Source: Xiphophorus maculatus (lineage: Eukaryota > Chordata > Actinopteri > Cyprinodontiformes > Poeciliidae). From it: a stretch of 64,000 nt of DNA. The notes under the pieces are model-generated. The model was given only the letters and a program-made list of their open reading frames with translations, was not told the DNA's origin and did not search any database. Each line of letters starts with the position of its first letter. Positions within the stretch are counted from its first letter, which is position 1. Below are positions 1 through 63,990 of this stretch, one piece after another. The stretch lies in NCBI RefSeq assembly GCF_002775205.1, contig NC_036446.1, positions 16,678,565 through 16,742,564 of the forward strand, in the 5' to 3' direction. The position numbers and the translations under genes were made by a program.

Positions 1-2129
1 AATATAAAAATAAACTGACATGGATTATAAGAAAACATAAAAAAGAATATTATACCGACCTATTAACAAAAAGTAACGGTGACACAAAAGCAATATGGAC
101 AGTTATACATAGTGTTTCTACAAAGCATACAATAAAATCTGGTATTGCAACACACTTTTTAAAAGAAAATACTGAAATTTATGATCGGAATGAAATAGCA
201 AACGAATTCAATCATTATTACGTAAATGTTGGTCCAAGACTTGCTGCTCAGATACCAAAAGATGATAGCGATGTTACCCAAAAAATTGGGAGTTGTCCAA
301 ACAGCATCTTTCTTGGAGAAACGGATGAGAAAGAAATACTGAGTATTGTAAACAAAATGGCGGATAAAAAATCAAAGGATTGGGTAAATATGGATATGAA
401 ATTTGTAAAGGAAATTATGTCTTATGTAATTAAACCATTCACCTATATCTGTAATTTGTCATTCTCATCAGGAAAATTTCCAGACGCCATGAAAATAGCA
501 AAGGTAATTCCCATTTACAAAAATGGTGAGAAATGTATGTTTAGTAATTACAGACCGATATCGTTGTTGCCACAGTTCTCAAAAATTTTGGAGAAACTAT
601 TTGTAAATAGATTAGATACATTTATAGATAAAAATAATATATTAAGTAGTAGTCAATATGGATTTAGAGCCAAAAATTCGACATCAATGGCCCTTATGGA
701 ACTGATAGAACATATAACAAATGCTATTGATCAAAAACAATATAGTGCTAGCATTTATGTCGATCTAAAGAAAGCATTCGACACGATTGACCATAGCATT
801 TTACTCAAAAAACTTATTAAATACGGGATTAGAGGGCCGGCATTACAGTGGATTTCGAGTTACCTGGAGAATAGAAAACAGTTTGTACAAGTACATGATA
901 CTAGATCCGAATTTTGTGAAATTACATGTGGAGTTCCACAGGGCTCAGTACTTGGACCAAAGTTGTTCATTTTATATGTAAATGATTTGGTAAATGTATC
1001 AGGGTTTTTCAAATGTATACTATTTGCGGATGATACCACTTTTTTTTGTCAGGGCAATGATATAAAAGGGATGTTAAAAGAAATGAAAATAGAATTTATG
1101 CAAATACATAAATGGTTCAAATTAAATAAATTATCTTTAAATTTGGATAAAACAAATTATATGTTATTTACAAGGAGACAAAGAATTGTAAATACTCCAT
1201 TTAAAGTTGATGGTGTAGAGATTTGTAGAGTTAGTGAGGTGAAATTTTTGGGTGTGATAATTGACGAGAAATTATCATGGAAATCCCATTTGAATTATTT
1301 AAGAACAAAATTAGCAAAATCAATTGCAGTGCTTTATAAAGTACGGAATTTTTTGAATGATCATGCACTATTTATGTTGTATAATACACTAATTGTTCCA
1401 CACTTGGTTTATTGTGTTGAGGTATGGGGAAAGGCATGTTATACTAGTATAAAATCTGTTTTTGTTTTGCAAAAAAGGGCAATAAGAGTTATTGCTCGAA
1501 AACATGGTAAATATCCAACAAATACATTATTTTGTAATTTGAGGTTTTTGAAATTCAATGATTTAGTTGATTATAATATTTTGTTGGTTATGTATAAGGC
1601 ACACTTAAAAACATTACCCTTAAACATCCAAAAAAATTTTGAAAAGAGAGAGAGTGGTTATAACCTTAAGGGGACACAGATTTTTAAGAAACCTAAATTC
1701 AGAACTTGTTTGAAAGAACGATGTACTTCGATACAAGGAGTCAAACTGTGGAACGACCTGCAAAACGATGTTAAAAATGCTAAATCATTACACATGTTTA
1801 AAAGAATGTTAAAGATTGTTTTTTTGAAGAAGTATGAAATAGTATAAAGTCAAAGTATAGTATTGTTCAGTTGAGATTGATGATTGACCTTGTTTCTTTG
1901 TTTTTCCTTTGTTTTCTTTTTTTGTCACATAAGACAAATCAAAAAAATTTTAGTTTTTTTTTTTTTTGTTTGTTTGTTTGTTTTTTGTTGTTTTGATCCA
2001 TAGTTGAGAAAAAGGGGCTGATATTATAAGATTATTTTCTTCTTTCTGCTACCTTTCATTTCATTTTTTTAAATTATTTTATTTTTTTCTTTGTATTAAA
2101 AATTTTTTTATTTGTATTGAATGAAATGA

Positions 2130-3100: not shown

Positions 3101-4405
3101 TGAGTCAGACTCTTGTAGCTATGCTAGCCATGTAGCTAACTAGCCTCCTCCTCGATGTTGCCAGATAATAAATAGTTGCATTAATAGAATGGACCGATAT
3201 TAGAAAATGTACGCATTAGAAACACGTTGAATGTTTGTTGTTGGAGGAATAATTGTCACGGTGCCAGCTCTTAATATTTAAAGAGGAAACTATATATATA
3301 TATATATCCAGGTAGCTAGCTAACTTTAGCCAAGTGAGCCAGGAGTCTAACGATTAAAACTGACTTTGATATAAAAGTTAAAACGAACACAAAATTTTGG
3401 CGTTAGTATCGATTCCTGTCTTCTTTGTGTTTTTCATTTTAGATGAGAAGTTTTCGATTTTCCTGTCAAGAAAAATCAAGAATGTGGATATAGATAAATA
3501 AAAAAAAAGCTACTAAATTAATAACTGATTCTAACCGCAGATCAACATGCCTGTTTTAAACGCTTCGCTCTGTTTAAACGTGATTTTACTTTTATTGAAG
3601 CTGACATGTTGCAGAGCGATTCAATGACCACAGATCCCCCCTGACAGGAGGCAACACTGGAAATTATTCATGTTATAAAATAGCTCAGAGTCTCTGGTGT
3701 ATTTCTGAAGATGCGTTCATTTGTTTGAGTTTTTATAATTTAAGCAAATTTAGTTGTAATTTAAGTTCTTTGGTAGGTGTACGTGTTTGACTTGGATGCC
3801 TCTATTGTTGTAATGCTTTTTTAATATGCAGGTTTTCTGCAGCCTCACAGAAAGTCTAAATTGTAGGCCTTTATAAAGTTTTGAATGTGTCCAAATTTTA
3901 CCCCGCAGGTCTTCGGTTACATTTACATGCATGGTAGCTTTTGTTAAGGGATCATCAGATTTGGCCGTGTGATGGACTGGCGAGCTGAATTTTCACCAAG
4001 TTTTAGCTTCAAAGACATGGAATTCAATAGAAAAGTCAAACCTGTCATCAGTACCCATTATGAAATTTACTCTGTACTGTGTGGTTAAATGGTTTTTAAA
4101 AACATCTAGAAGAACAATCATGTAAGTAGTTATGTCCTCCTTAATTTATGTAGATCCTAAAATTAAATCCCAATGGTCTTAAAACGTCCAAAATTTAATT
4201 TAATGAAGATTACAGAAATCTGAAAATGGTTGTCCTTATCATCAGGTCAGTGAGTTTTCTTGTATTTATTTCAGTCCTTGTTTCTTTTCTTGCTTTGAGT
4301 CTCATACTGACCCCAAAACCTTTACATAATTATTTAGGCGTTTTTTTGGCTTTAGGAAATTTCCAATTCTTTTTATGTTACAAATTAAGCCACAAAGACC
4401 CATGT

Positions 4406-4919
4406 AGGCCTGTCATGATAACAAAGTTTGCTGGACGATAAATTGCTCCAGAAGTTATTGCGATAAACAATAAATATTGGTTTGAGACCATTTCCAAGCA
4501 ATATAATGGTAAAATAACACAAATTCACATTTCCCAAAGATCAATAGACTTTAAGTTCTAATGAACATTTGACACTAGAACTGGAAGACATTTTAAATAT
4601 CAAAAATGAATGAACAAAACAACAGAAAACGATAAATAAAATGAATTTTAAAGTGTTTGTGAGCAAAATTGTCCTTCACAAAAGGGCTAGTTGAGACAAA
4701 AGCACCAGACTGAAGACTTTTGTCATCCAGTTTTTGGTAGAAAGAGAAAAATTATAATTTATGCAAATAGAAATTATTGAGTTGGTTTGAATGTGTCATG
4801 CTATTAATTGATTTATGCTTAATGGCGGCGATAAAGAGCAAGGAGTCAGGGAGGTCCTGCACGACTCTGCCTACACTTCCAGAAATGCACATTATTGCTT
4901 ATTGTGTTGTGACAGGCCT
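4406..4919. mobile_element. hAT-like MITE carrying an atxn1l exon fragment
   Basis: The element is about 514 bp. It opens with AGGCCTGTCATGATAAC and closes with the inverted partner TGTGACAGGCCT, giving a terminal inverted repeat of about 10 bp (AGGCCTGTCA). The internal sequence (TTGCTGGACGATAAATTG, then TTGCGATAAACAATAA) resembles an abundant fish family of non-autonomous hAT elements, recalled and not searched. No transposase is encoded. The flanking 8-mers (4398-4405 and 4920-4927) are only weakly alike, so any target-site duplication has decayed. Its unusual feature is the 76-bp segment at 4817-4892, which copies coding sequence of the neighbouring gene. Confidence 0.7.
4817..4892 (+). 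repeat. 76-bp duplicate of atxn1l coding sequence inside the MITE
   Basis: This stretch matches 6171-6246 in atxn1l coding exon 1 at 75 of 76 positions, in the same orientation. The single difference is C at 4865 versus G at 6219. Similarity stops sharply at both ends. The left flank is MITE body (ATTAATTGATTTAT) and the right flank is the MITE terminus (TATTGCTTATTGTG). Confidence 0.95.
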
Positions 4920-5328
4920 CGACCTGTGAGTTTTTTGATGCTCAGAGCAGCAAGTTTTGAGAAATTGGATGGATGGGATTTATAAGTTATTTAATCTGCA
5001 CCAGCCAAGCTTTTGATTGCATGCATTATTTTTTATTTACAAACTTTTTCAGAGAAGTGCAGTTATACTTTTTTAGACACAACTTATAGAACGATGTGTC
5101 TACTGTTAACTCCCCCCCCAAAAAAACAGTTCTCTTTTTCTCCTTTTAGGTTGAGTTACAACTTAGACTTACACATCCTGAGTGTGTGTGTTGTGTGTCT
5201 TCCTAGGTGAACTGGCAGACAGGGTCAGCCAGGTGATTTCAGAACTGGTTGCGGTGCGGGCTGGCTGGCTTGCAGGTTTCAGTTCCTGTGCTGTGCAGTA
5301 AAGCAACTTGGTTGGTCAAAGGATTGCA

Positions 5329-6369
5329 ATGAAGCCAGCTCAGGAGCGCAACCAGGAGAGCCTGCCTCCTAAGAAGAGGGACCTCCCTCTCAGCAACAGC
5401 GGTGGCGGCGTCGGTGTCGGAGGGGCGGGTGGGGTCGGAGCTACGGGAGGCGCCGGCAGTGCTGCTGGAGGAGGTAACGGAGAAGCTGAAGTTGTTTCCA
5501 TCCACAACTGTGCAGCCGGCAGTGAGACTCAGGGAGGGAACCCATCAGGAGAGTGGCCACGAATTCATCCAGAGCATCACTATGGGGTGGACAATTCAGA
5601 GAGCATCTCAGCAGGACCTGTTGATCAGTACAGTATGATTTACAAAGTGGCTGTTCCTTCTGTTACCTACTCGCCCACTAGCCTGCACCCAGTGCTAAGC
5701 CACATCTCGCCCACATACACCGTACACTCTCCTCTCCTGCAGCATCCAGGCCTTCCCTATCCTCCCCTGGGTTACGCTCACATCCCTCATCCGTCTCTCC
5801 AGTTTGTTAGTTCCCCGTACGCTGCGGTTCCTTATGCCGTCCCGTCCGGCTTCGTCCCTGGATCGCTGATTTCTCCGTCAGGCGCCATCTCTCAGCCTCA
5901 TGCCATGTCCCACCTGGTTCCCTATCCATCCGTCATACAGGACGGAGTTGTTTCCCCGCCTCCCCAGGCCCAGGCTCATACATTTACCAAAGTTGCAGCG
6001 CCAGGTGGCGTCCCGCTGATGATTCCTTCAGAGCAAGCTGCCCAGCAGCACATCGGTACTATCGGAGTCATACCTGCCCCAGAGATCAGCTCCAGGGGGA
6101 TGCCAGTCTTCTACCACCCCCAGAGCAGCCGGGGGTCGTCCGCCCCTGGCGACCTACACAACGAAGCAGAGCTTAATGGCGGCGATAAAGAGCAAGGAGT
6201 CAGGGAGGTCCTGCACGAGTCTGCCTACACTTCCAGAAATGCACATCTGCAGCAGGTAGTGTCCATCTCCGCGGCGCAAGAGCACAGCCAAGAAAGGGCC
6301 CTGCAGAACCGACGCCTGGAAGGCCGGAGCTCTCCTGGTCAGCGCAGCACTCCGGACAGCGATCTGGAG
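5329..6369 (+). CDS. atxn1l: atxn1l coding exon 1
   Basis: The exon encodes residues 1-347. It probably begins at 5207, after a TTCCTAG acceptor, giving 122 bp of 5'UTR before the ATG. An in-frame TTG upstream at 5308 is not needed, because the ATG at 5329 matches the conserved N-terminus. It ends ...SDLE before GTAAGA. Bases 6171-6246 are the source of the copy in the upstream MITE. Confidence 0.93.
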
Positions 6370-8280
6370 GTAAGACATGCTCACGGCTCAATAATGGAGC
6401 CTAAAAATTAGAACCGGCACGAAATTTCAACCATGTTGTTGAATTTATGAGATGATATTGATTGGAATTAATGCACATTTTTCTAACTACTCGGTTTCTT
6501 TTCCATCTTCACCATAGCAGGCTATACTGAAAATGTATTAAATTTGTTTAAAAAAAATTAAGTTGGCCATAATTATGTCATGCACAGGTTGTAAAATTAG
6601 TCGTCGTAGGACTTTTATTTGGTTGTTGTTTTGTTTTTTTAGTTAATTTGTATAGTTTTGGTTACAAAGTGTAGTTTGAAGACTTAAATTGAAAATGCTT
6701 GAAAAGGGCTTGAATTCTACTGAGGGAAAAAGAGTACGAAGCCTGTAAAAAGTTTTGTGAATGTATTTCAAAAGGCAACTTTTAAACATTTAAATGTTTG
6801 TTGCAATGAAACTCAAAATGTCCCCACATTGATTCCTCGGTTTGCCTCCCAGGTGCAGCAGGTCGTTGGCCGCCTGGCTACCTCGAGTCAAGGTGTTGGC
6901 GGGGTGCGGAAGGAGGTCTCGTTTGCCCCCTTGAATCTCTCTCAGGGGGTCCAAAGAACCAGAGACGTCCACGGGGAGAGCCCGGCTGTTACCAGCAGGG
7001 CTGTGCATTCGGCGCAACCGCTGAGTTACGTTGAACACAAAGTCGGCGGTCTCCAGCAACAGCCGGGTCACGCCGTCATGCTGACCAACGGGCAGCCGGT
7101 GCTCGTTCCTCTCGACTATCACTTGCAGCATCAGTCCCAGCCGCAGCAACACTACCCAGGACAGGCGAGCGACGCCGCAAAGGCCTCCCTTAACCCAAGC
7201 TTTAAAACCTCTGAGTCTCCAGGCAGAGCCGGCCTCCCTGAGAAGGTGGAGCCAACCACAGCTAAGCAGCAGCAGCAGCATCATCATCATCAGCAGCTGC
7301 CTTCTCTACAGCCATCAGTCCACTCTGCAGCAGAACTAACTCAGGCCTCAGGCGTCCCGGCGGCGGCGGCGCCTGGCAGTAACCCGTCACATTTCATGAA
7401 GGGGGCGATTATCCAGCTGGCCACCGGGGAGCTGAAGCGTGTGGAGGATCTGCAAACTCAGGATTTTGTGCGAAGCGCAGAGGTCAGCGGAGGGCTCAAG
7501 ATCGACTCCAGCATGGTGATGGACATCCGGTCCAGCCAGCAGAGACCGGGTCTGGTGTCTCTGCATTTCACGGTGGGGGAGCAGCAGAGCAAGGTGACCA
7601 TCGACGTCCCGCCAGAGCACCCGTTCTTCGTGTTCGGCCAGGGTTGGTCGTCGTGCAGCCCCGAGCGCACGGCCCAGCTGTACGGCCTGGCCTGCCACCT
7701 CCTGCAAGTGGGGGACATGTGCGTGTCCATCACGCTGCAGCAGCAGCAGCTTCAGCCGCAGCTGCAGAAGCAGCCGCAGCATCACAACTCGCAGCAGAAC
7801 GTGTCAAGAACTTTAGGCAAAAGCAACGCGGCATCGGGACCCGGTCACCAGCTCATGGGGCCTCCCGCGCCCCAACAGCTGCGGCCGCAGGCTCATTTCA
7901 GGATGGATCGCGTCCACAGAGAACGGCAGCGGGACGGCGAGGGCGGCGTGCTGGAAAAGGACGAAGCACATTTAGCGGTTGTTGGACACACTGAATCCCC
8001 CGTCCGGCGAGGTCGGACCTCCACGGAGCATCCCAGGAGTCAGAGCAGCTACCACTTGCACACAGAGGGCTCTGCTTTCGCCGGGACCGGCATGCCCACC
8101 ATGCAGGCCGCGCTCAGCGCTTCTCAGAGGCGCTGGTCGTCGCCCGGCCTCCAAAGATACAGCATGAAGGGAGACGAAGGGCCACGCCCTCAGATAATCG
8201 CCTCTGGCCACACGAGGCCTTCTTTCATCCCGCAGGAGGTGAAACTGTCCATCGAGGGGCGCTCTAACGCAGGGAAGTAG
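5329..8280 (+). CDS. atxn1l: Ataxin-1-like protein (brother of ataxin-1), two coding exons
   Basis: Joining 5329-6369 and 6853-8280 gives 822 aa (human is about 689). The ATG at 5329 starts MKPAQERNQESLPPKKRDLP, the family N-terminus. A Gly-rich tract (about residues 25-52) and a DQYSMIYKVAVP block follow. A Gln/His run (486-495) precedes the AXH domain (about 527-643), which opens FMKGAIIQLATGELKRVED. The protein ends SFIPQEVKLSIEGRSNAGK, diagnostic of ATXN1L over ATXN1. ATXN1 and ATXN1L bind the repressor Capicua through the AXH domain and act as nuclear co-repressors. Donor GTAAGA at 6370 and the acceptor AG at 6851-6852 join in phase 0 inside DLE|VQQVVG, as in the human protein. Odd features are the expanded Gln/His tracts and an RRWSSP motif at residues 773-778. 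The gene is convergent with znf821. Confidence 0.95.
6853..8280 (+). CDS. atxn1l: atxn1l coding exon 2 with AXH domain
   Basis: The exon encodes residues 348-822 and the TAG stop at 8278-8280. Codons lying upstream in the same open frame (from 6757) are intronic read-through. The exon holds the Q4H4Q2 run at 7267-7296, the AXH domain at about 7390-7738, a second Gln/His-rich stretch at about 7735-7800, and the RRWSSP motif at 8128-8145. Confidence 0.93.
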   Translation: MQQVVGRLATSSQGVGGVRKEVSFAPLNLSQGVQRTRDVHGESPAVTSRAVHSAQPLSYVEHKVGGLQQQPGHAVMLTNGQPVLVPLDYHLQHQSQPQQHYPGQASDAAKASLNPSFKTSESPGRAGLPEKVEPTTAKQQQQHHHHQQLPSLQPSVHSAAELTQASGVPAAAAPGSNPSHFMKGAIIQLATGELKRVEDLQTQDFVRSAEVSGGLKIDSSMVMDIRSSQQRPGLVSLHFTVGEQQSKVTIDVPPEHPFFVFGQGWSSCSPERTAQLYGLACHLLQVGDMCVSITLQQQQLQPQLQKQPQHHNSQQNVSRTLGKSNAASGPGHQLMGPPAPQQLRPQAHFRMDRVHRERQRDGEGGVLEKDEAHLAVVGHTESPVRRGRTSTEHPRSQSSYHLHTEGSAFAGTGMPTMQAALSASQRRWSSPGLQRYSMKGDEGPRPQIIASGHTRPSFIPQEVKLSIEGRSNAGK

Positions 8281-12400: not shown

Positions 12401-13940
12401 CGTGTGTTTGTGACTATTTAACATGTTACTATTTAAATATCTTTGCCTGACAGCCACTCCCAACAGCAAGTATGGTTCCTCGGTTTATGAAATTTGTGAA
12501 GACTTAATTAGTTTTCTGGAATTAAAACAAATTAAATCTTGAACAAAATGGTTAAAAGCATTAGCTGGCAAGTATTTTTACATTTTCATGCAAACTAGTA
12601 AAGACATTTGTGTACTTCTACTACTAAAATGTGTTTTTTAATGCTTTAAATTAGTGTGTATAGGTTGCAGCTCGCGGGCCGTTTGGGGCCCTCGAGATGT
12701 TTTTCCGCAGCTTGCAACTGATTCAAGACTGTTATGGCTGCTACAGAAATGACACTTAAACTTTTTTAGTGTAAGATTTTCGATGTCGAAATCATCAAAA
12801 TTAAAAAATGCTGTATTACACAATACCACAAACAACCAGCAACTACTAGTACATCTAAAAAAATGAGAGATATTGCATGAGAGTGCAATATTTCTTGCAC
12901 TCTTGATTATGAAACGATTATTTTATAGAAATTAATTTGAGTAAAATATTTCAAACTTGTTTTTTTGTTTGCAGTTTGAATTATTGTGGCTTATAAAGAA
13001 AACCAAAACATTTAGCGTCTCAAAAAATTGTCTTGAATTTTGGGTTTTCTTCACGTGTAAGCCACAATAATTAATACTGCAAAAGAAAGAAAAAGAAATG
13101 AAGCTTGAAATATTTTACTTTATGTAATGAATCTCTCACTTCCTGAACTTACTGTGAAGAAATATTGCACTTTCACACAATATAAAATTTTTTGAGCTGC
13201 ACTTTTATGACTCAAAATAAGACAGAAAAATACAGCAATTATTTCCTCTGCTGAAAAAAATTTAAATGTTTTTCTTTTACACGAGTTAAAAAAAGTAAAG
13301 CCTCCAGTAATATTATGACGTTGTATGCCTTTAATTTAGATTTTTTTTTTCTGAGTTGTCTTTCACTTCTGTGCAGAACTTCACATAGGGTCAGTGACGT
13401 CCATGCAGAGTCTTGTAACCAAACAGAAGCGGTTTGGAGGTTTTGGCCAGTTGAAACATTTTAAACTCTGGATCACACGAGAAAAAAGGACTGTAGAAAA
13501 TTAGGAAAAACTTGCATCTTGAACACCTGTTTGTTATGCGGGTCGGATATTTGCCTTGATCTCACATATCGAGGCAAATATGCGAGATCCTTTTCACATT
13601 ACTGGTCCTTTTATCTACAAAAGTGACTATTTTGTTCATTAAAATAGTGTTTTCACTGGTGAGCAGCTAAAAAATTGCTTCCTCCACCCACGCACACTTT
13701 CAATATGACAAATTGGGCTTCCTTGGCGAAAAGCTAAATGAAGCATTAAATACGAGTGCAATGGTTTAGAAACTATACTATCTAAAATAATAAATCAGAA
13801 CACATTTTTAAATTTTTTTCCCAATTCAGATTAACTGATAATTTGTTCATTATGTAATGTAACAACTCGAGGACCTACTGATGTGATATTGAGTATGAGT
13901 GACTGCCTAAAGAGCAACAGAAGGTAAACACTTGCTCTAT
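12401..13940. other. Intergenic gap between convergent atxn1l and znf821
   Basis: AT-rich spacer between the two predicted poly(A) sites. Apart from the MITE at 12849-13202 I see no feature in it. Confidence 0.4.
12849..13202. mobile_element. Palindromic mariner-type MITE
   Basis: The element is about 354 bp and folds back on itself. The left end GTACATCTAAAAAAATGAG pairs with the right end TTTTTTGAGCTGCAC. GTGCAATATTTCTTGCAC near 12882 pairs with GAAATATTGCAC near 13159. An inner pair (TTATTGTGGCTTATAAAG near 12983, AAGCCACAATAA near 13060) extends the palindrome. The ends resemble a common fish Tc1/mariner MITE whose terminus reads GTGCATCTCAAAAAATTAGA (recalled). No coding capacity. Confidence 0.7.
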
Positions 13941-16646: not shown

Positions 16647-17619
16647 TCATGGCAGCTTCATGAAGAGACCATTATCTATGGAAGGAACCGGCATGGGACA
16701 GGGGAACTGAAAGAGACTCATGTCCGCTGTGAGAGCGGCCATTGCGGCGGGATCGTGCTCGATCTGTGTCCTGAGGGCGGGGTCAATCTTCTCCAGCCGC
16801 CGCTTGATCCGCTTGGCCTCCCTCTCGCGGATCAGCCGGGCCTGCCTCTTCTCCGGAGTCTCGTTGGCCCTCTTTAGCCGCATGGCCTCCCGGTCTCTCT
16901 GCAGCCGCCGCGCCCTCTGCTCCTCCGTCTCCTGCATCCTCTGCATGCGCTTGGCCTCGCGGTCTCGCAGCCGCCTCAGCTCCTTCTCCTCGTCCGTCTC
17001 GCAGGCGCGCTTGTTCTTCTTTGCGGTGCGTTCGCGCTCCAAACGCTGCAGGCGAGCCTCCAGGGGCTCGTTCTTGCGACGCAGGGCCCACTTCCGCATC
17101 GGAGACTGCGCCTCCACCAGCTGCTGGTAGGCCACGCAGCTGTTGCACACCAGCAGGACTCCGGCGGGGTAGACGGGCATCGGGCTCATGATGTCGGGAA
17201 TGGGAGGAAGGGCTGAGGAGGAGGAGTTGAGGGCGTCAGGGATGGACGCGAGCGACGGACCTTCAGACAGGAGCCCGTCGGGCAGCGAAGGAAAGGCGGG
17301 TCCTTGTTCGGACCCCGAGCAAGGTCCACAACCTGGGCTTAACGCGTGGCACGGCCGGGGTCCTTGACACTGGTTTGGGATGTGGCTGGAGGCCTGGCAG
17401 GAGCGATGGGCCTGACAGAGGGTGGATGTCGGATCGGGAGCCTGGCAGGGAGGCGGGCCCTGACAGGAACTGGGACTGGGACCCGCTCCGTGGCAGGAGT
17501 GCGTGCTGGAGCCCGGGCTGCTCATGGGGCTGCTGGAGAGGGAGTGGGACATGGAGCAGGATTCCCGTCCACCAGTGATGTCAATCCTGCTTGTGTCGAG
17601 GACATCTTTTAGCTTTTCC
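16647..17619 (-). CDS. znf821: znf821 terminal coding exon: low-complexity insert and STPR repeats
   Basis: 973 nt from the TTATTACAG acceptor to TGA at 16649-16647. It starts EKLKDVLDTSRID, matching human EKLPEVLN. A Ser/Pro/Cys-rich stretch follows (about 17560-17200) with repeated CQGP and CQAP units. The conserved VYPAGVLLVCNSC block, the RKWALRR motif, the STPR repeats and a Met-rich tail complete it. Frame upstream of 17619 is intron. Confidence 0.93.
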
Positions 17620-20600
17620 CTGTAATAAGACAGAAGGTTAGCTGAAACAAGGCCTCGACTTTCGATCTCTGAGATGATTCTTCGGCTACGTTCACACACA
17701 GCAAGTCTTGATGATTTCAAGGAATTGTTTTGGCTCTTGTGGCCTTTTTTCCACAGTAGCTTGACAGGAAGTTAGATTATGAGAGAGCCACGCCCAATCT
17801 ACAACTTTTTGCTGAGGTCTGATTTGTTTTGCTTTGTCGTTCATAGCTGACCAGCCTTATCCATGTGCTTTAAACGTTTGTCTTCAACCATTTCTCAAAG
17901 GTTTCTTCACTGACTCGCAGGTCAAACTACTGCACTGTAACTGTTGATTTAATTTCTACTGCATATTGCTCTGCTTTCATTATGCTTTGTGATATTTTTA
18001 TGGCAAAACGTCTCTTTAGATTGTAAAGGCTGCAGATCCCTGACATACACAGTTCTTTTTAAGAAGGTAGATTTTCATAATGATTAACAATGAAACTGCA
18101 GAGTTACTGCGTTGACATGCTTTATAAATGACAGACTATCTGAAGAGAGTAGAACTGATTTTACAGAAAAGTCTGGTAGTTTTAAATTGCTTATATATTT
18201 TGTAACTTTTCTGTGTTGAGTTTTATAATTTATCCCTCCCTCTCTTTCCACTGTGTATTCTGACCTTGAAAGAGCTGTTTAAATGGAAAAAAGAAAAAGA
18301 AAACGAGCTAATGGCAGTTGCTAAGCAACGTGCAAGTTTATTTCCTATGGATCTGTCATTGCAGGACTAAATGTATTCATCCCTCATGTTATACAGTCTG
18401 GTTCATCTCTCACTGGGAAACCACTTCTTTATTTATTCTGATGTGCTCAGCTGGAGACGCATCACCTAAACGTCATTCAGCTTTAGGAAACTTTTTGGTC
18501 TGCCATGTTTTATGTCTTCCCCACATCCTTGCCTGGTAAGAATTTGACCATCAATGGGAAGAGTAAAAATGCAGCCTTGGCATACAGCTTATATATGTGT
18601 TGTTTTTTTTTTAAAAGTGTGCTATTCTAGTAATAAAATCCCATCGCATTCAATACAACAGACATCAAGTTCCTTGCAAACTTGTGCATAGAAGAGCCGA
18701 GCAGCAGCAGCAGATCTGGGGTGAACCTGTTAAAGTTGTTGGTGTCTGTGAAGCGTGCGCCACAGACGGCGCAGTTGGAGAGGCGGTCCTCAGAGTGGAT
18801 GAGAAGATGCCGTCCAAGCGAGCCAGGAGAACTCAGGGCTCGCCCACACACCGGGCACACGTAGCTCTTGGTGTTGCTCATCATGCTTGTATGCTGGGAA
18901 AGACAGCGGAGAAAGATAAACATATAAACTTACCGTGATAAACTGTAAAAGGCAGTTGTTGTTGTTTTTTTTAATCTATTATAAATTTAGGAGGAAAGAT
19001 GGATAGAATGTATCATCGTGACTGGATTAAAGGGAGTCAGTTATGAAAGGAAGTAGCTTTTAAAACCACGTTTAACTCCACACTTAATGTTATAAACCTG
19101 TAACAGATTGTTCTGTCATATTTATTTATTGAGTGAAAGTGCTAAATTCTTATGAAGATTTCCAGATTTCGTTGACCAGCTGATTCTGAGCAACTGTGAT
19201 TTAAATTGAGTCTGACATATAAAATCAAGAAAAAGATCATAGGTGTTAATCCATTAAATCATGTGTATTTAACGTTTATCAGATTTTTTTTAATGGAAGA
19301 AGTCTGAGTTTTCGTATCATTTTTTCGTGTTTCTCTTGCAAAGCTCCTCGCTGTTTGTATTCATCAAACTTGTGTGCATCATCCCGGAGGTTTAATGTTG
19401 AAAACTAAATATAAATACCTTTGGTAATTAAAATGAAAGAAGCACATTGAAGTTGCTGCAATTGGTTGACGTGTTTATGCACTGACATGGTAGAAATTAA
19501 TAGATGTGAACCATTTAATAGTTCTTTCAGCTAACAAGATGGGATTGATGTCTGGCAGAGCCATCTGTGTTTCTGTTATAACAACAACATAAAATATTAT
19601 TACTATTCAACTACTATGTGTTTACTTTAATGTAGATATAACTGTACTCACATATAGCAGTATTTTGACATTTGTCACTTCAAATGAAAACTTTATTAGT
19701 GTAACATAAACAACTGGATTACAGGAGAATTGTAATCACCAAAAAAAAAAAAAAAAGCTACAGTTTTAGAATTTGCTCTGCATTTTTCTCAGCATGACAT
19801 TGACCTGAATTTACTGGATTTATTACCTCTAACAAGCTGTTTTTGTTAAAACAGACTCTAAAATGTTGGACGGCGCAGCTGCTAATTGACTAGTACGCAC
19901 TAATTGAGACAAAAAATGCAAGATGCTGCAACAGTTTCCAAAGTCGTCCGTGTTTTTATAGTTGGAAAAAAATGCAGTCCTCACCTGGTAGACATGTGAA
20001 ATGAGTCTCTCAGGGCTGCTGAAATCCAGCGTGCACAGAGGACAGACAAAGTTGTTGCCGTGGTCAGCCCCCTCGTCACTCTCCTGAGGAAAATAAAAGC
20101 ACATTTTTAGAGTAGATTTATTCACGCATATGGTGTGGGTGGGCGGTAAAAGTAAATCCACATTAAAAAACCGTATGTGCTTCGGGTGTGCAATGAAGCT
20201 CACCCTTTAGTGATTTAAGCGAAGGCATTGTTTGTATCAAGCTTAACGTCAGCCTGCGTGGAAGCTATTTCTAACTGTAAGTGTAGGATGATGTGTTGAG
20301 TGTGTGACTGTGCAAAAGTCAGTGAGTCATTACTGGTCACATGACGCTGTCACAGATGTTACTCATGCACAAGTTGAAATGTAGAGCACTTGGAAACAGA
20401 AGGTACCTCCACAAAACATATTGGTAGATAGCAGAGCTTTCACACCTTGAACTGCTCAAAGACTTAAAAAAAGAAAAAGTCTGCCAACAAATTAGCTCAT
20501 TTGATCCATGTAATTCTGATGCATTTTACAGGCATGTAGTGACATTTTATAGCAGAATCAAGTAATTACACTACCTTCATTTAAAAAAATTTGATTAAAA

Positions 20601-27560: not shown

Positions 27561-27715
27561 GATATGATTACGTATAAGACAGGAAGACAAACGGAGGTGT
27601 AGAGAAACATTAAGGCAATATTTTCAAACCCATTTCAAATTACTCATATTAAATATTCAACATAAAAAAACAACTCTATATTGTTTTCGTGACTTTTTAT
27701 TTTTGCGTTTTTATG

Positions 27716-27762
27716 ACGCAAAGCACTTTGAACTGCCTCGTTGCTGAAATGTGCTATACAAG
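27716..27762 (+). repeat. Interspersed repeat tail, copy A
   Basis: CACTTTGAACTGCCTCGTTG and the following ATGTGCTA match an abundant fish SINE/LINE 3'-end motif. The segment is an inverted copy of 29866-29910 (32 of 33 core bases). Confidence 0.6.
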
Positions 27763-29865: not shown

Positions 29866-29910
29866 CTGTAGCACATTTCAGCAACAAGGCAGTTCAAAGT
29901 GTTTACACGA
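29866..29910 (-). repeat. Interspersed repeat tail, copy B
   Basis: The inverted partner of 27716-27762; both derive from the same fish SINE/LINE tail family. Confidence 0.6.
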
Positions 29911-30199
29911 TAAACACACAATACAATCAACAAACACAAAAGAAGCAACACTTTATTTATAACGAAGCGAAATAAGGAGAACATAGTAGTTAATCTATGT
30001 TCCGGTTATTAATTAAAAGCAGCTCTAGTCAACTTTTTAGCCTTGATCAGTGTTTCAGCATTTTTGCAGTTTTATGGAAGTGGTCACTTTAAACTTTAAA
30101 TACATACGTTGTTTTAATGGTCATTTATTCAATTCTAAATGGCAAAATCGGAACTTTGAAGTACTGCTGCTGATTATATGCCACATCCACCTGCTCTAC

Positions 30200-61485: not shown

Positions 61486-61930
61486 ACAGTGTCCTGGAAA
61501 AGTATTCACACACCTAGATTTAGTTGACCTTATATCAATTTTTATATGATACAACAACACAAAGTGATGCATAATTAGTGATGTAGCAGAGCCAAACTTA
61601 AAATTTTAATAATTATTTTCTGTGAAAATTGGAGGAATCGTTTCTGTGAGCAGTGTTTTATGTTATTTCACACATTCTTTTTTGGATTTATTTCTGTATT
61701 TTTGTGGGTTTTTTATTTTATTTTATATTTTTGCTGGGCTTAGTAAGACTTTGTCAGTTTTAAAGTTCACAGCTAAAAGCTGTAAATCATGTATCACTTC
61801 CCTTCTGTCTCAGAATTAGGCTTTTTGTTGGCATAGCAAACAAAATCTCTGTATAATACATCTTAGTTCGCTGTTGCAATGTGATGAAATGGGAGAATTT
61901 CAACGAGTCTGAACACTTTTGTATGGCAAC
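61486..61930. mobile_element. Tc1-type MITE
   Basis: The left end CAGTGTCCTGGAAAAGTATT and the right end CTGAACACTTTTGTATGGCA are imperfect inverted repeats. They resemble the fish Tc1-like terminus CAGTGCCTTGCAAAAGTATT (recalled). There is no transposase frame. Confidence 0.6.
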
Positions 61931-63828
61931 TTAAGAGGAGATGATGTCTGCTCATTGTTCAAACAGTGTTTGAAACAATGAAGTTTTGAAATTTGGATTA
62001 GTGGACCATGCATTTGTATTTCAAGAAATCTGTAAAGCAAAGATCATGTTTGTTAAGATCTTTATCTAAAAATCGATCAGATCATCCTCTTTTCACCAGA
62101 CAACTTACATCTATCTGCTTTCTGGTCATAATACGCATCGGTGCACACATGTCTTCTGTTTAATTTCTGAGCACATTATTTTTCTGCCTTATTTTCTACA
62201 GCTGTTGTGCTTCAAAGTTCAGAGCAGCAGGTGACCTGTGGAGTTTCACCATTATATCCTATTTATCCAGAAAGGCCCTCTGACACACACACACCCACAC
62301 ACACACCCTTATGCTGTGGCGCACAGATGAAATTAAAACAAACAAACGCAGGAGTAAACATTTCAGGGCTGTGACTTAATGAGGACACTCCTAGTGAAAA
62401 CAGCCGGAGTTCCGGTGGTCCTGTTTGTCAGCTCATGCAGCTGTGGATCAGATGAAGCCGGTTGTAGGTTCTGGCGCTGGTCCCCCCCGGGCCATATTCC
62501 ACCTCTGGCTTGGTGATGTCTCAGATCTTTGAGGTCATAGATGGAAAGCGGCTGTGTGGAGATCATAAGGTCTTCTGTCAGGGTTGGATCGGAGGGAAGT
62601 GCATCATCAGAAAATAGAGTGAGATCACTTTATGCTTTATTAAACTGAGAGGTGTTGATTTGTTAAGCTTTTTGATGTCCTGCACAGTGAAAAGTTTATG
62701 CTTGTGACTCTCTTTCCAACTGTTGGATCACAGTATCCAGAAATCATGTCCTCAAAGTGACTAATAACTCCCATGTTGCCTCTTCTTCTTCATGGTAATA
62801 TTTAAAGGAGTAAGATTTAGTGGCAAAAACACAAGAGGGATTGTAAGAGTTGAAGTAAAAATTAAATTCTGTTCAGATCCGATCTCCCGCAGTATTGCCC
62901 TGGGCAACAGAGCTGTGGAGAGAGCAGGCTCTCTGTGGTTTCCTGCCAGCTCCTCGTAATGTTCTGTCTCTGCGATCAAGTTAGTTTCTCCCAAGGATTT
63001 CCTCTTACCCCTTTTAGACCCGGTGTCAGTTTTTCATTTGGTACCAATGCCCAGCTTTCAGGTGGCACGTTTTATTGCTGCTGCTAAGAAGCCCCCATAC
63101 AAATAGCCTGTTTTCATGTCATCTGTATTCAAATGCAGCAAGCAACTGTTCCTCATGAGATCGGCACGCCAGGAGTTAGATTTTTTCTTTTTTTTACACA
63201 GAAAATTTGTCTATTTGTTTATCTTTTAAATATAGGCGTTTGAAACCCGCCAACAAGAGGCATCTGTGCTGTGGGTATAGAATCAGAGTTTGCTGTCGAA
63301 AAGAGCTTTCTGTTCTGAGTCAAATCAAACTGTTTCCGCCTCCACCGACCCCCTACTGCATGCTAATGCAATCTTGAGTAAGACAAAAGGGCTCTGGGAA
63401 ACAGAGAGTATTGTATTCATCTAAGTGCTTGAGAAATGGCTTGAAGTAATCCAATATAGGAATAAAAAATGAGTTTAGAAACTATGGAAGTCCTTCTTAC
63501 CAAGTACCGCAGCCTTAAACAGCTCCATAAAAGAGAAGAAGCCATTCCTATTCTGCCATTTGATTCTAAAGTAGAAAACAAACACACCAGTTTCATATTT
63601 TGGGCTCTTATTTGTTTCTTTGTGATCATTGTGAGGGTGTTTAACAGTAGACCTAAAAGGCCTACACAGTCCTGTTAAGATGCCAGGTTTTTGTGATGTA
63701 ACACATGTAGATAAAAGAAAAGCACTGCAGTATTTCTTCACCTCTGTGACATATAGCCAATTTAACTAAAAACAAAAGTAACCTGCTCCTGGGAAAATGT
63801 AAAAGAAAATAAAATAAACTGTTTTTCT

Positions 63829-63879
63829 AACATTTTCTCATTTGCAGCTTAAACCTAAAGCTGCAAATGAGGAAATGTT
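63829..63879. repeat. Long perfect-stem palindrome
   Basis: Arms 63829-63850 and 63858-63879 pair at 21 of 22 positions around a 7-base loop; the inner 14 bp are perfect. Confidence 0.95.
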
Positions 63880-63990
63880 GAAATAGGAGAATTTCAACAG
63901 GTCTGAACACTTTTGTGTGGCAACTGTAAGAGGATCTAATGGCTGCTTAGTGTTCAAACGTCGTTTGAAACTGTGAAGATTTGAAACTTC
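63862..63990 (+). repeat. Second copy of the 61873-61995 repeat
   Basis: GAGAATTTCAAC, CTGAACACTTTTGT and GTTCAAAC blocks occur in the same order and spacing at 61893-61995 and 63887-63985. The similarity extends about 65 bp beyond the MITE terminus at 61930. Confidence 0.8.

What the first reader, a model, noticed from the sequence alone, without database searches (positions are those of the whole stretch)
4406..4919. A MITE upstream of atxn1l carries a near-identical piece of atxn1l's own coding exon
Bases 4817-4892 match 6171-6246 of coding exon 1 at 75/76 positions with sharp borders. The copy sits between a hAT-like MITE body and its 3' terminus, 1.35 kb upstream of the source and in the same orientation. 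Gene-fragment capture by MITEs (Pack-type elements) is known in plants and rarely described in fish. Low divergence suggests a recent event or ongoing gene conversion. If transcribed in intron 1 the copy could also pair with antisense RNA or template recombination.
Basis: partly seen in the sequence, partly recalled or inferred. Interest (0 to 1): 0.8.

Follow-up and report, generated by a model that had tools for sequence, protein, structure and literature searches.

The report
Repair-copied exon scrap in old transposon
A 76-base piece of a fish ataxin-1-like gene's coding exon has been copied about 1.35 kb upstream into what looks like an old transposon remnant, most likely as a patch made during DNA break repair, which is a known and ordinary kind of event.

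Summary
In detail: 4817-4892 matches 6171-6246 at 75 of 76 bases, same strand, sharp borders. The donor lies in the first coding exon of an ataxin-1-like gene and is conserved in most aligned relatives, so copying ran exon to element. The acceptor looks like a small hAT-type MITE: 10-bp inverted termini plus an 8-bp target duplication matching at 6 of 8 (39 of 3000 random sequences do as well). Both duplication mismatches fit CpG decay, while the copy's three CpGs are intact, so the copy probably arrived after the MITE. The single differing base seems to have changed in the exon: the copy encodes Asp, as do 50 of 69 aligned relatives, the nearest included; 12 have Glu. Short tract, 1.35 kb distance, no poly(A) and junction GCTTA/TATT match 'repair-mediated duplications' (PMC2671141, 80 listed in zebrafish) and gap-filled single-copy Pack-TIRs (PMC8277862). 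Mobile Pack-type capture is not supported. Untested: family consensus, sister species, reads, transcripts; the own-genome search gave 13 busy replies.

The parts
4397..4404 (.). presumed left target-site duplication GACCCATG
   Evidence: 6 of 8 match to 4921-4928; both mismatches fit decay of one ancestral CpG on opposite strands (inference)
4405..4415 (+). 5' terminal inverted repeat of the hAT-like MITE (TAGGCCTGTCA; 4406-4415 match perfectly, first base does not)
4416..4816 (.). AT-rich MITE body, no long ORF (4406-4816: GC 0.30)
4817..4892 (+). 76-bp copy of the atxn1l coding exon: last base of codon 281 plus codons 282-306, with GAC (Asp) where the exon has GAG (Glu297)
   Evidence: 75 of 76 identity; codon 281 start computed
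4893..4901 (+). right junction: TATT then GCTTA; GCTTA also begins the copied tract (4817-4821), and TAT also ends the left flank (4814-4816)
4910..4920 (-). 3' terminal inverted repeat of the MITE
4921..4928 (.). presumed right target-site duplication GACCTGTG
5329..6369 (+). first coding exon of the ataxin-1-like gene (ATG 5329; candidate splice donor GTAAGA from 6370, read by eye)
   Evidence: frame; Pfam PF12547 E 1.5e-7 over residues 1-243; homologues named Ataxin 1-like
6171..6246 (+). donor segment in the exon
6757..8280 (+). ORF with the AXH domain, presumably the downstream coding part of the same gene
   Evidence: PF08517 E 3.7e-41

Best explanation
A repair-mediated duplication. An old, resident hAT-like MITE upstream of atxn1l suffered a break or stalled fork near its 3' end. 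One 3' end primed on the atxn1l exon 1.35 kb downstream, copied 76 bases, came off and was rejoined to the other side of the break with a short filler or duplication. The copy stayed where it was made. Since then the exon, not the copy, has probably taken the one change that separates them. Shown: the duplicate, its source and direction, its borders. Inferred: the break, the repair pathway (synthesis-dependent strand annealing, theta-mediated joining or fork template switching, not told apart here), that the acceptor is a MITE, and that it was there first.
For: One donor in the window, 1354 bp away, same strand. The donor residues are conserved in most aligned ataxin-1-like relatives, and 76 is not a multiple of 3, so a move in the other direction would have shifted the exon's frame. 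Junctions: GCTTA at the tract start and again after 4 bases of right flank; 2 of 967 exon positions have their 5-mer within the 12-base right flank, 0.5% for random break and donor points in 100000 draws; TAT is shared by both flank ends. No poly(A) beside the copy. Target duplication differs at 2 of 8, copy at 1 of 76, Fisher p 0.023; three CpGs shared by copy and donor are intact. Fits PMC2671141: inserts of >=50 bp in transposons, 824 human cases with donor within 5 kb, average distance 1.2 kb, 39 of 39 inspected proximal cases with microhomology, filler, deletion or TSD and none with poly(A). Fits gap-filled single-copy Pack-TIRs of PMC8277862.
Against: No family consensus and no sister species could be read, so the pre-insertion site is unknown, microhomology and filler are read from the product alone, and two parsings remain. 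The junction test was chosen after seeing the sequence. The age contrast rests on 8 presumed TSD bases at fast-decaying CpG sites. The MITE reading itself has a chance rate of 39 of 3000. The break lies close to the element's end, whereas breakpoints in PMC8277862 lean inward. The part of the element before the copy (4406-4816) shows no unusual folding that would explain a break (z -0.42). Glu at codon 297 recurs in 12 relatives, so the polarity of the one change is likely but not certain.
Confidence: 0.83

Rival explanations
1. RNA- or LINE-templated insertion: reverse-transcribed atxn1l RNA patched a break or was inserted by a LINE enzyme.
For: The copy is entirely exonic and from one exon, so splicing cannot exclude it; an ORF with a reverse transcriptase domain lies at 357-1847; LINE-mediated and RNA-derived insertions are described (PMC5110952, passages); GCTTA at both ends could be read as a 5-bp target duplication.
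Against: No poly(A); with a 4-base filler between copy and second GCTTA the duplication reading is strained; nearness to the donor has no ready explanation unless nascent RNA was used; 0 of 39 inspected proximal cases in PMC2671141 had poly(A), 17 of 29 distant ones did.
Confidence: 0.07
2. True Pack-type capture: the MITE took up the fragment and then transposed with it.
For: The fragment lies between both inverted termini.
Against: The source is only 1.35 kb away; the target duplication looks older than the copy; no second copy in the window. Genome-wide copy number could not be tested.
Confidence: 0.05
3. Assembly artefact.
For: No reads were available; the two copies are nearly identical.
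Against: The copy differs at one base, and its residue there is the one that 50 of 69 aligned relatives have, which a mis-assembly would not be expected to produce; sequence differs on both sides of the copy.
Confidence: 0.04
4. Ongoing gene conversion keeps an older duplicate similar.
For: High identity at close range.
Against: The tract is short, the borders sharp, and the one difference is not erased; not required by the data.
Confidence: 0.02

Closest known systems
Repair-mediated duplication (RD) by capture of proximal DNA, Pace et al. 2009, PMC2671141
   Same: Insert of at least 50 bp inside a transposon, donor within 5 kb, junction features, no poly(A), exons among donors; 80 cases listed in zebrafish
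   Different: Here uniqueness in the genome and the empty site are untested. Exon pieces are rare among donors there (4 'partial exon/intron', 2 full exon, 2 intron/exon/intron of 824).
Single-copy Pack-TIR by gap filling, Tan et al. 2021, PMC8277862
   Same: hAT-type element (208 of 370 there), donor under 15 kb away (160 of 281 there), both termini kept
   Different: The 76-bp insert is below that study's 100-bp cut-off; the element's consensus is unknown here
Class 2 templated sequence insertion polymorphism, PMC5110952
   Same: Templated patch at a break with microhomology or added bases (passages)
   Different: Templates there come from distant regions; polymorphism is untested here

Membership tests
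Repair-mediated duplication (PMC2671141) | insert of at least 50 bp | tested here: met
   76 bp
Repair-mediated duplication (PMC2671141) | insert interrupts a recognisable transposon | tested here: inconclusive
Repair-mediated duplication (PMC2671141) | one donor only; nearest within 5 kb and more than 50 bp away | tested here: inconclusive
   one donor at 1354 bp within the window; rest of the genome not searched (13 busy replies)
Repair-mediated duplication (PMC2671141) | microhomology, filler, deletion or TSD at breakpoints | tested here: inconclusive
   GCTTA and TATT, or a TAT duplication, but no empty site to compare
Repair-mediated duplication (PMC2671141) | no poly(A) or poly(T) tract | tested here: met
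   sequence at both borders
Repair-mediated duplication (PMC2671141) | empty site in relatives or consensus | not testable with these tools
   no fish genome could be read; three pattern scans gave 0
Pack-TIR (criteria of PMC8277862) | internal sequence longer than 100 bp | tested here: not met
   76 bp; cut-off
Pack-TIR (criteria of PMC8277862) | both flanks cover at least 10 bp of the consensus ends | tested here: inconclusive
   10-bp perfect termini but no consensus to check against
hAT MITE | 8-bp target duplication and short inverted termini | tested here: inconclusive
   6 of 8 with a CpG-decay reading; 10-bp termini; chance 39 of 3000; the hAT label is recalled
hAT MITE | multi-copy family | tested here: inconclusive
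   no further copy in the 64-kb window; no answer for the genome

The most novel reading that the evidence does not exclude
The copy is a young molecular fossil in a gene's own upstream region: it preserves the exon's earlier Asp codon, sits in sense orientation, and as a 76-bp direct repeat could mediate deletion of 1354 bp including the start codon, or act as a regulatory or conversion donor for atxn1l.
Probability: 0.04. Interest if true: 0.45.

Novelty: new member of a known kind. Interest (0 to 1): 0.22.

Why it matters
It is a clean, young example of a known vertebrate process that scatters short pieces of DNA, now and then exon pieces, into nearby old transposons. Because the copy seems to hold the older state of one codon, it could mark when a change in the gene happened. 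It does not show a mobile, gene-capturing fish MITE.

Tried and rejected
The search of the window's own genome with window:4780-4930 was sent 13 times and never answered. Terminal patterns gave 0 matches in viral contigs and genome contigs, collections of viruses and prokaryotes where a fish element was not expected; BLAST of 4406-4925 gave no match in phages or plasmids. Two searches with frames read from the element, in the hope of family copies among predicted proteins, found no candidate. Folding of 4406-4816 as DNA was unremarkable. A first idea that the mismatch arose in the copy was dropped. Gene conversion and Pack-type transposition were considered and put low.

Results against the reading: the inverted termini alone are not significant (1670 of 3000 random sequences), termini plus target duplication 39 of 3000. 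The same scan of the whole window listed 12 hits at 6 or so places, several overlapping or made of A/T runs, but three places other than this one are not plain runs (32476, 44865, 57818). A pattern search for the 3' terminus found 2 matches with 1.62 expected by chance. Some rows in the count are poorly aligned at that spot (for example P0060, P0061, P0074, P0076); none was dropped.

Full report
Observation. Bases 4817-4892 and 6171-6246 agree at 75 of 76 positions on the same strand, 1354 bp apart, and the match stops sharply at both borders. BLAST within the window gives E from 3.9e-31 to 3.7e-34. The finding is real and not chance.

Donor. The frame from ATG 5329 matches Pfam PF12547, Ataxin-1 like, E 1.5e-7, over residues 1-243; the donor segment (residues 282-306) lies outside that stretch. 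A further ORF, 6757-8280, carries AXH. A protein search, in which only the 7986 candidates sharing most words were scored, returned 79 proteins. That the window is from a teleost is inferred from these. The donor residues LNGGDKEQGVREVLHESAYTSRNAH lie in a stretch that aligns in most of them (query plus 29 of the 79; all 79 pairwise). Hence the exon is the source. A 76-base insert would also have shifted the exon's frame.

Who changed. The single difference is 4865 C against 6219 G: GAC (Asp) in the copy, GAG (Glu297) in the exon. Of 79 proteins, 69 have a residue there: Asp 50, Glu 12, others 7; 10 are gaps. The best hit, P0002, has Asp. The simplest reading is that the exon changed after copying and the copy has no change in 76 bases (95% upper bound 3.9%).

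Acceptor. The copy lies between inverted termini AGGCCTGTCA (4406-4415) and TGACAGGCCT (4910-4919). After one more base on each side stand GACCCATG and GACCTGTG, 6 of 8 alike. Both differences could come from one ancestral CG that became CA on one side and TG on the other (inference). Termini plus a duplication of this quality arose in 39 of 3000 random sequences, termini alone in 1670 of 3000, so the MITE reading is likely but not certain. The hAT label is recalled knowledge of 8-bp duplications and termini of that type. GC is 0.30 in 4406-4816, 0.53 in the copy and 0.59 in the exon.

Order of events. The presumed target duplication differs at 2 of 8 bases, the copy at 1 of 76 (Fisher p 0.023; CpG sites decay fast, which weakens this), and the three CpGs that copy and donor share are intact. 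So the element probably settled first and the fragment came later.

Junctions. The copied tract begins GCTTA; the right flank reads TATT then GCTTA. Either GCTTA guided the switch and TATT is filler, or the site once read ATTTATTGC and TAT was duplicated (for the shared TAT). Without an empty site this stays open. A 5-base agreement of this kind is found for 2 of 967 donor positions, and in 0.5% of 100000 random draws of break and donor point, but the test was chosen after the fact.

Comparison with what is known. PMC8277862 was found, PMC2671141. Of PMC2671141 I read the outline, parts 1 and 2 of 8 of the text, sections 10, 12 and 21, and passages: repair-mediated duplications in transposons, 824 human cases with donors within 5 kb, average distance 1.2 kb, 80 in zebrafish, exons rare among donors. 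Of PMC8277862 I read the outline, parts 1 and 2 of 10, sections 12 and 14, and passages: 370 Pack-TIRs in 100 animals, 208 in hAT, 160 of 281 within 15 kb of the parent, single-copy ones explained mostly by transposition-independent gap filling. Of PMC5110952 I saw the listing and passages. The present case agrees with the first in the features I could test, with several left inconclusive, and falls under the 100-bp cut-off of the second.

What is not known. Genome-wide copy number, family consensus, sister species, reads and transcripts could not be reached; the genome search was busy 13 times. In the open-access library the term 'Pack-TIR' occurs in 1 paper, and a search for at least 5 of 6 terms on MITE, hAT, teleost and gene capture listed 9 papers, none of which is about such a capture in fish as far as title and start of abstract show. 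I make no claim that the fish case is absent from print.

Verdict. An ordinary, young, well-delimited duplication of the repair-mediated kind; interesting as an example and as a small fossil of the exon's earlier state.

Noticed in passing
window 357-1847 (+): Open 496-aa ORF with a reverse transcriptase domain (PF00078, E 2.9e-37) and no other Pfam match, LINE-like.
   Followed up: partly
window 16647-17720 (-): ORF with repeated REAKR-like units and no Pfam match; resembles ZNF821 (STPR repeats), a neighbour of ATXN1L in mammals as I recall it.
   Followed up: partly
window 61882-61994 and 63876-63989; 27703-27756 and 29869-29921; 12940-13119; 63824-63883: Other repeats: a direct pair at 83%, an inverted pair at 85%, and two imperfect palindromes at 68% and 85%.
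   Followed up: no
P0079, P0080: Database proteins named human annexin A8 isoforms carry an ataxin-1-like Pfam domain beside annexin repeats; perhaps a read-through or mis-predicted isoform.
   Followed up: no
window 4817-6246: As direct repeats the pair could recombine and delete 1354 bp, including the start codon and the first 280 codons (sizes; the event itself is a guess).
   Followed up: no
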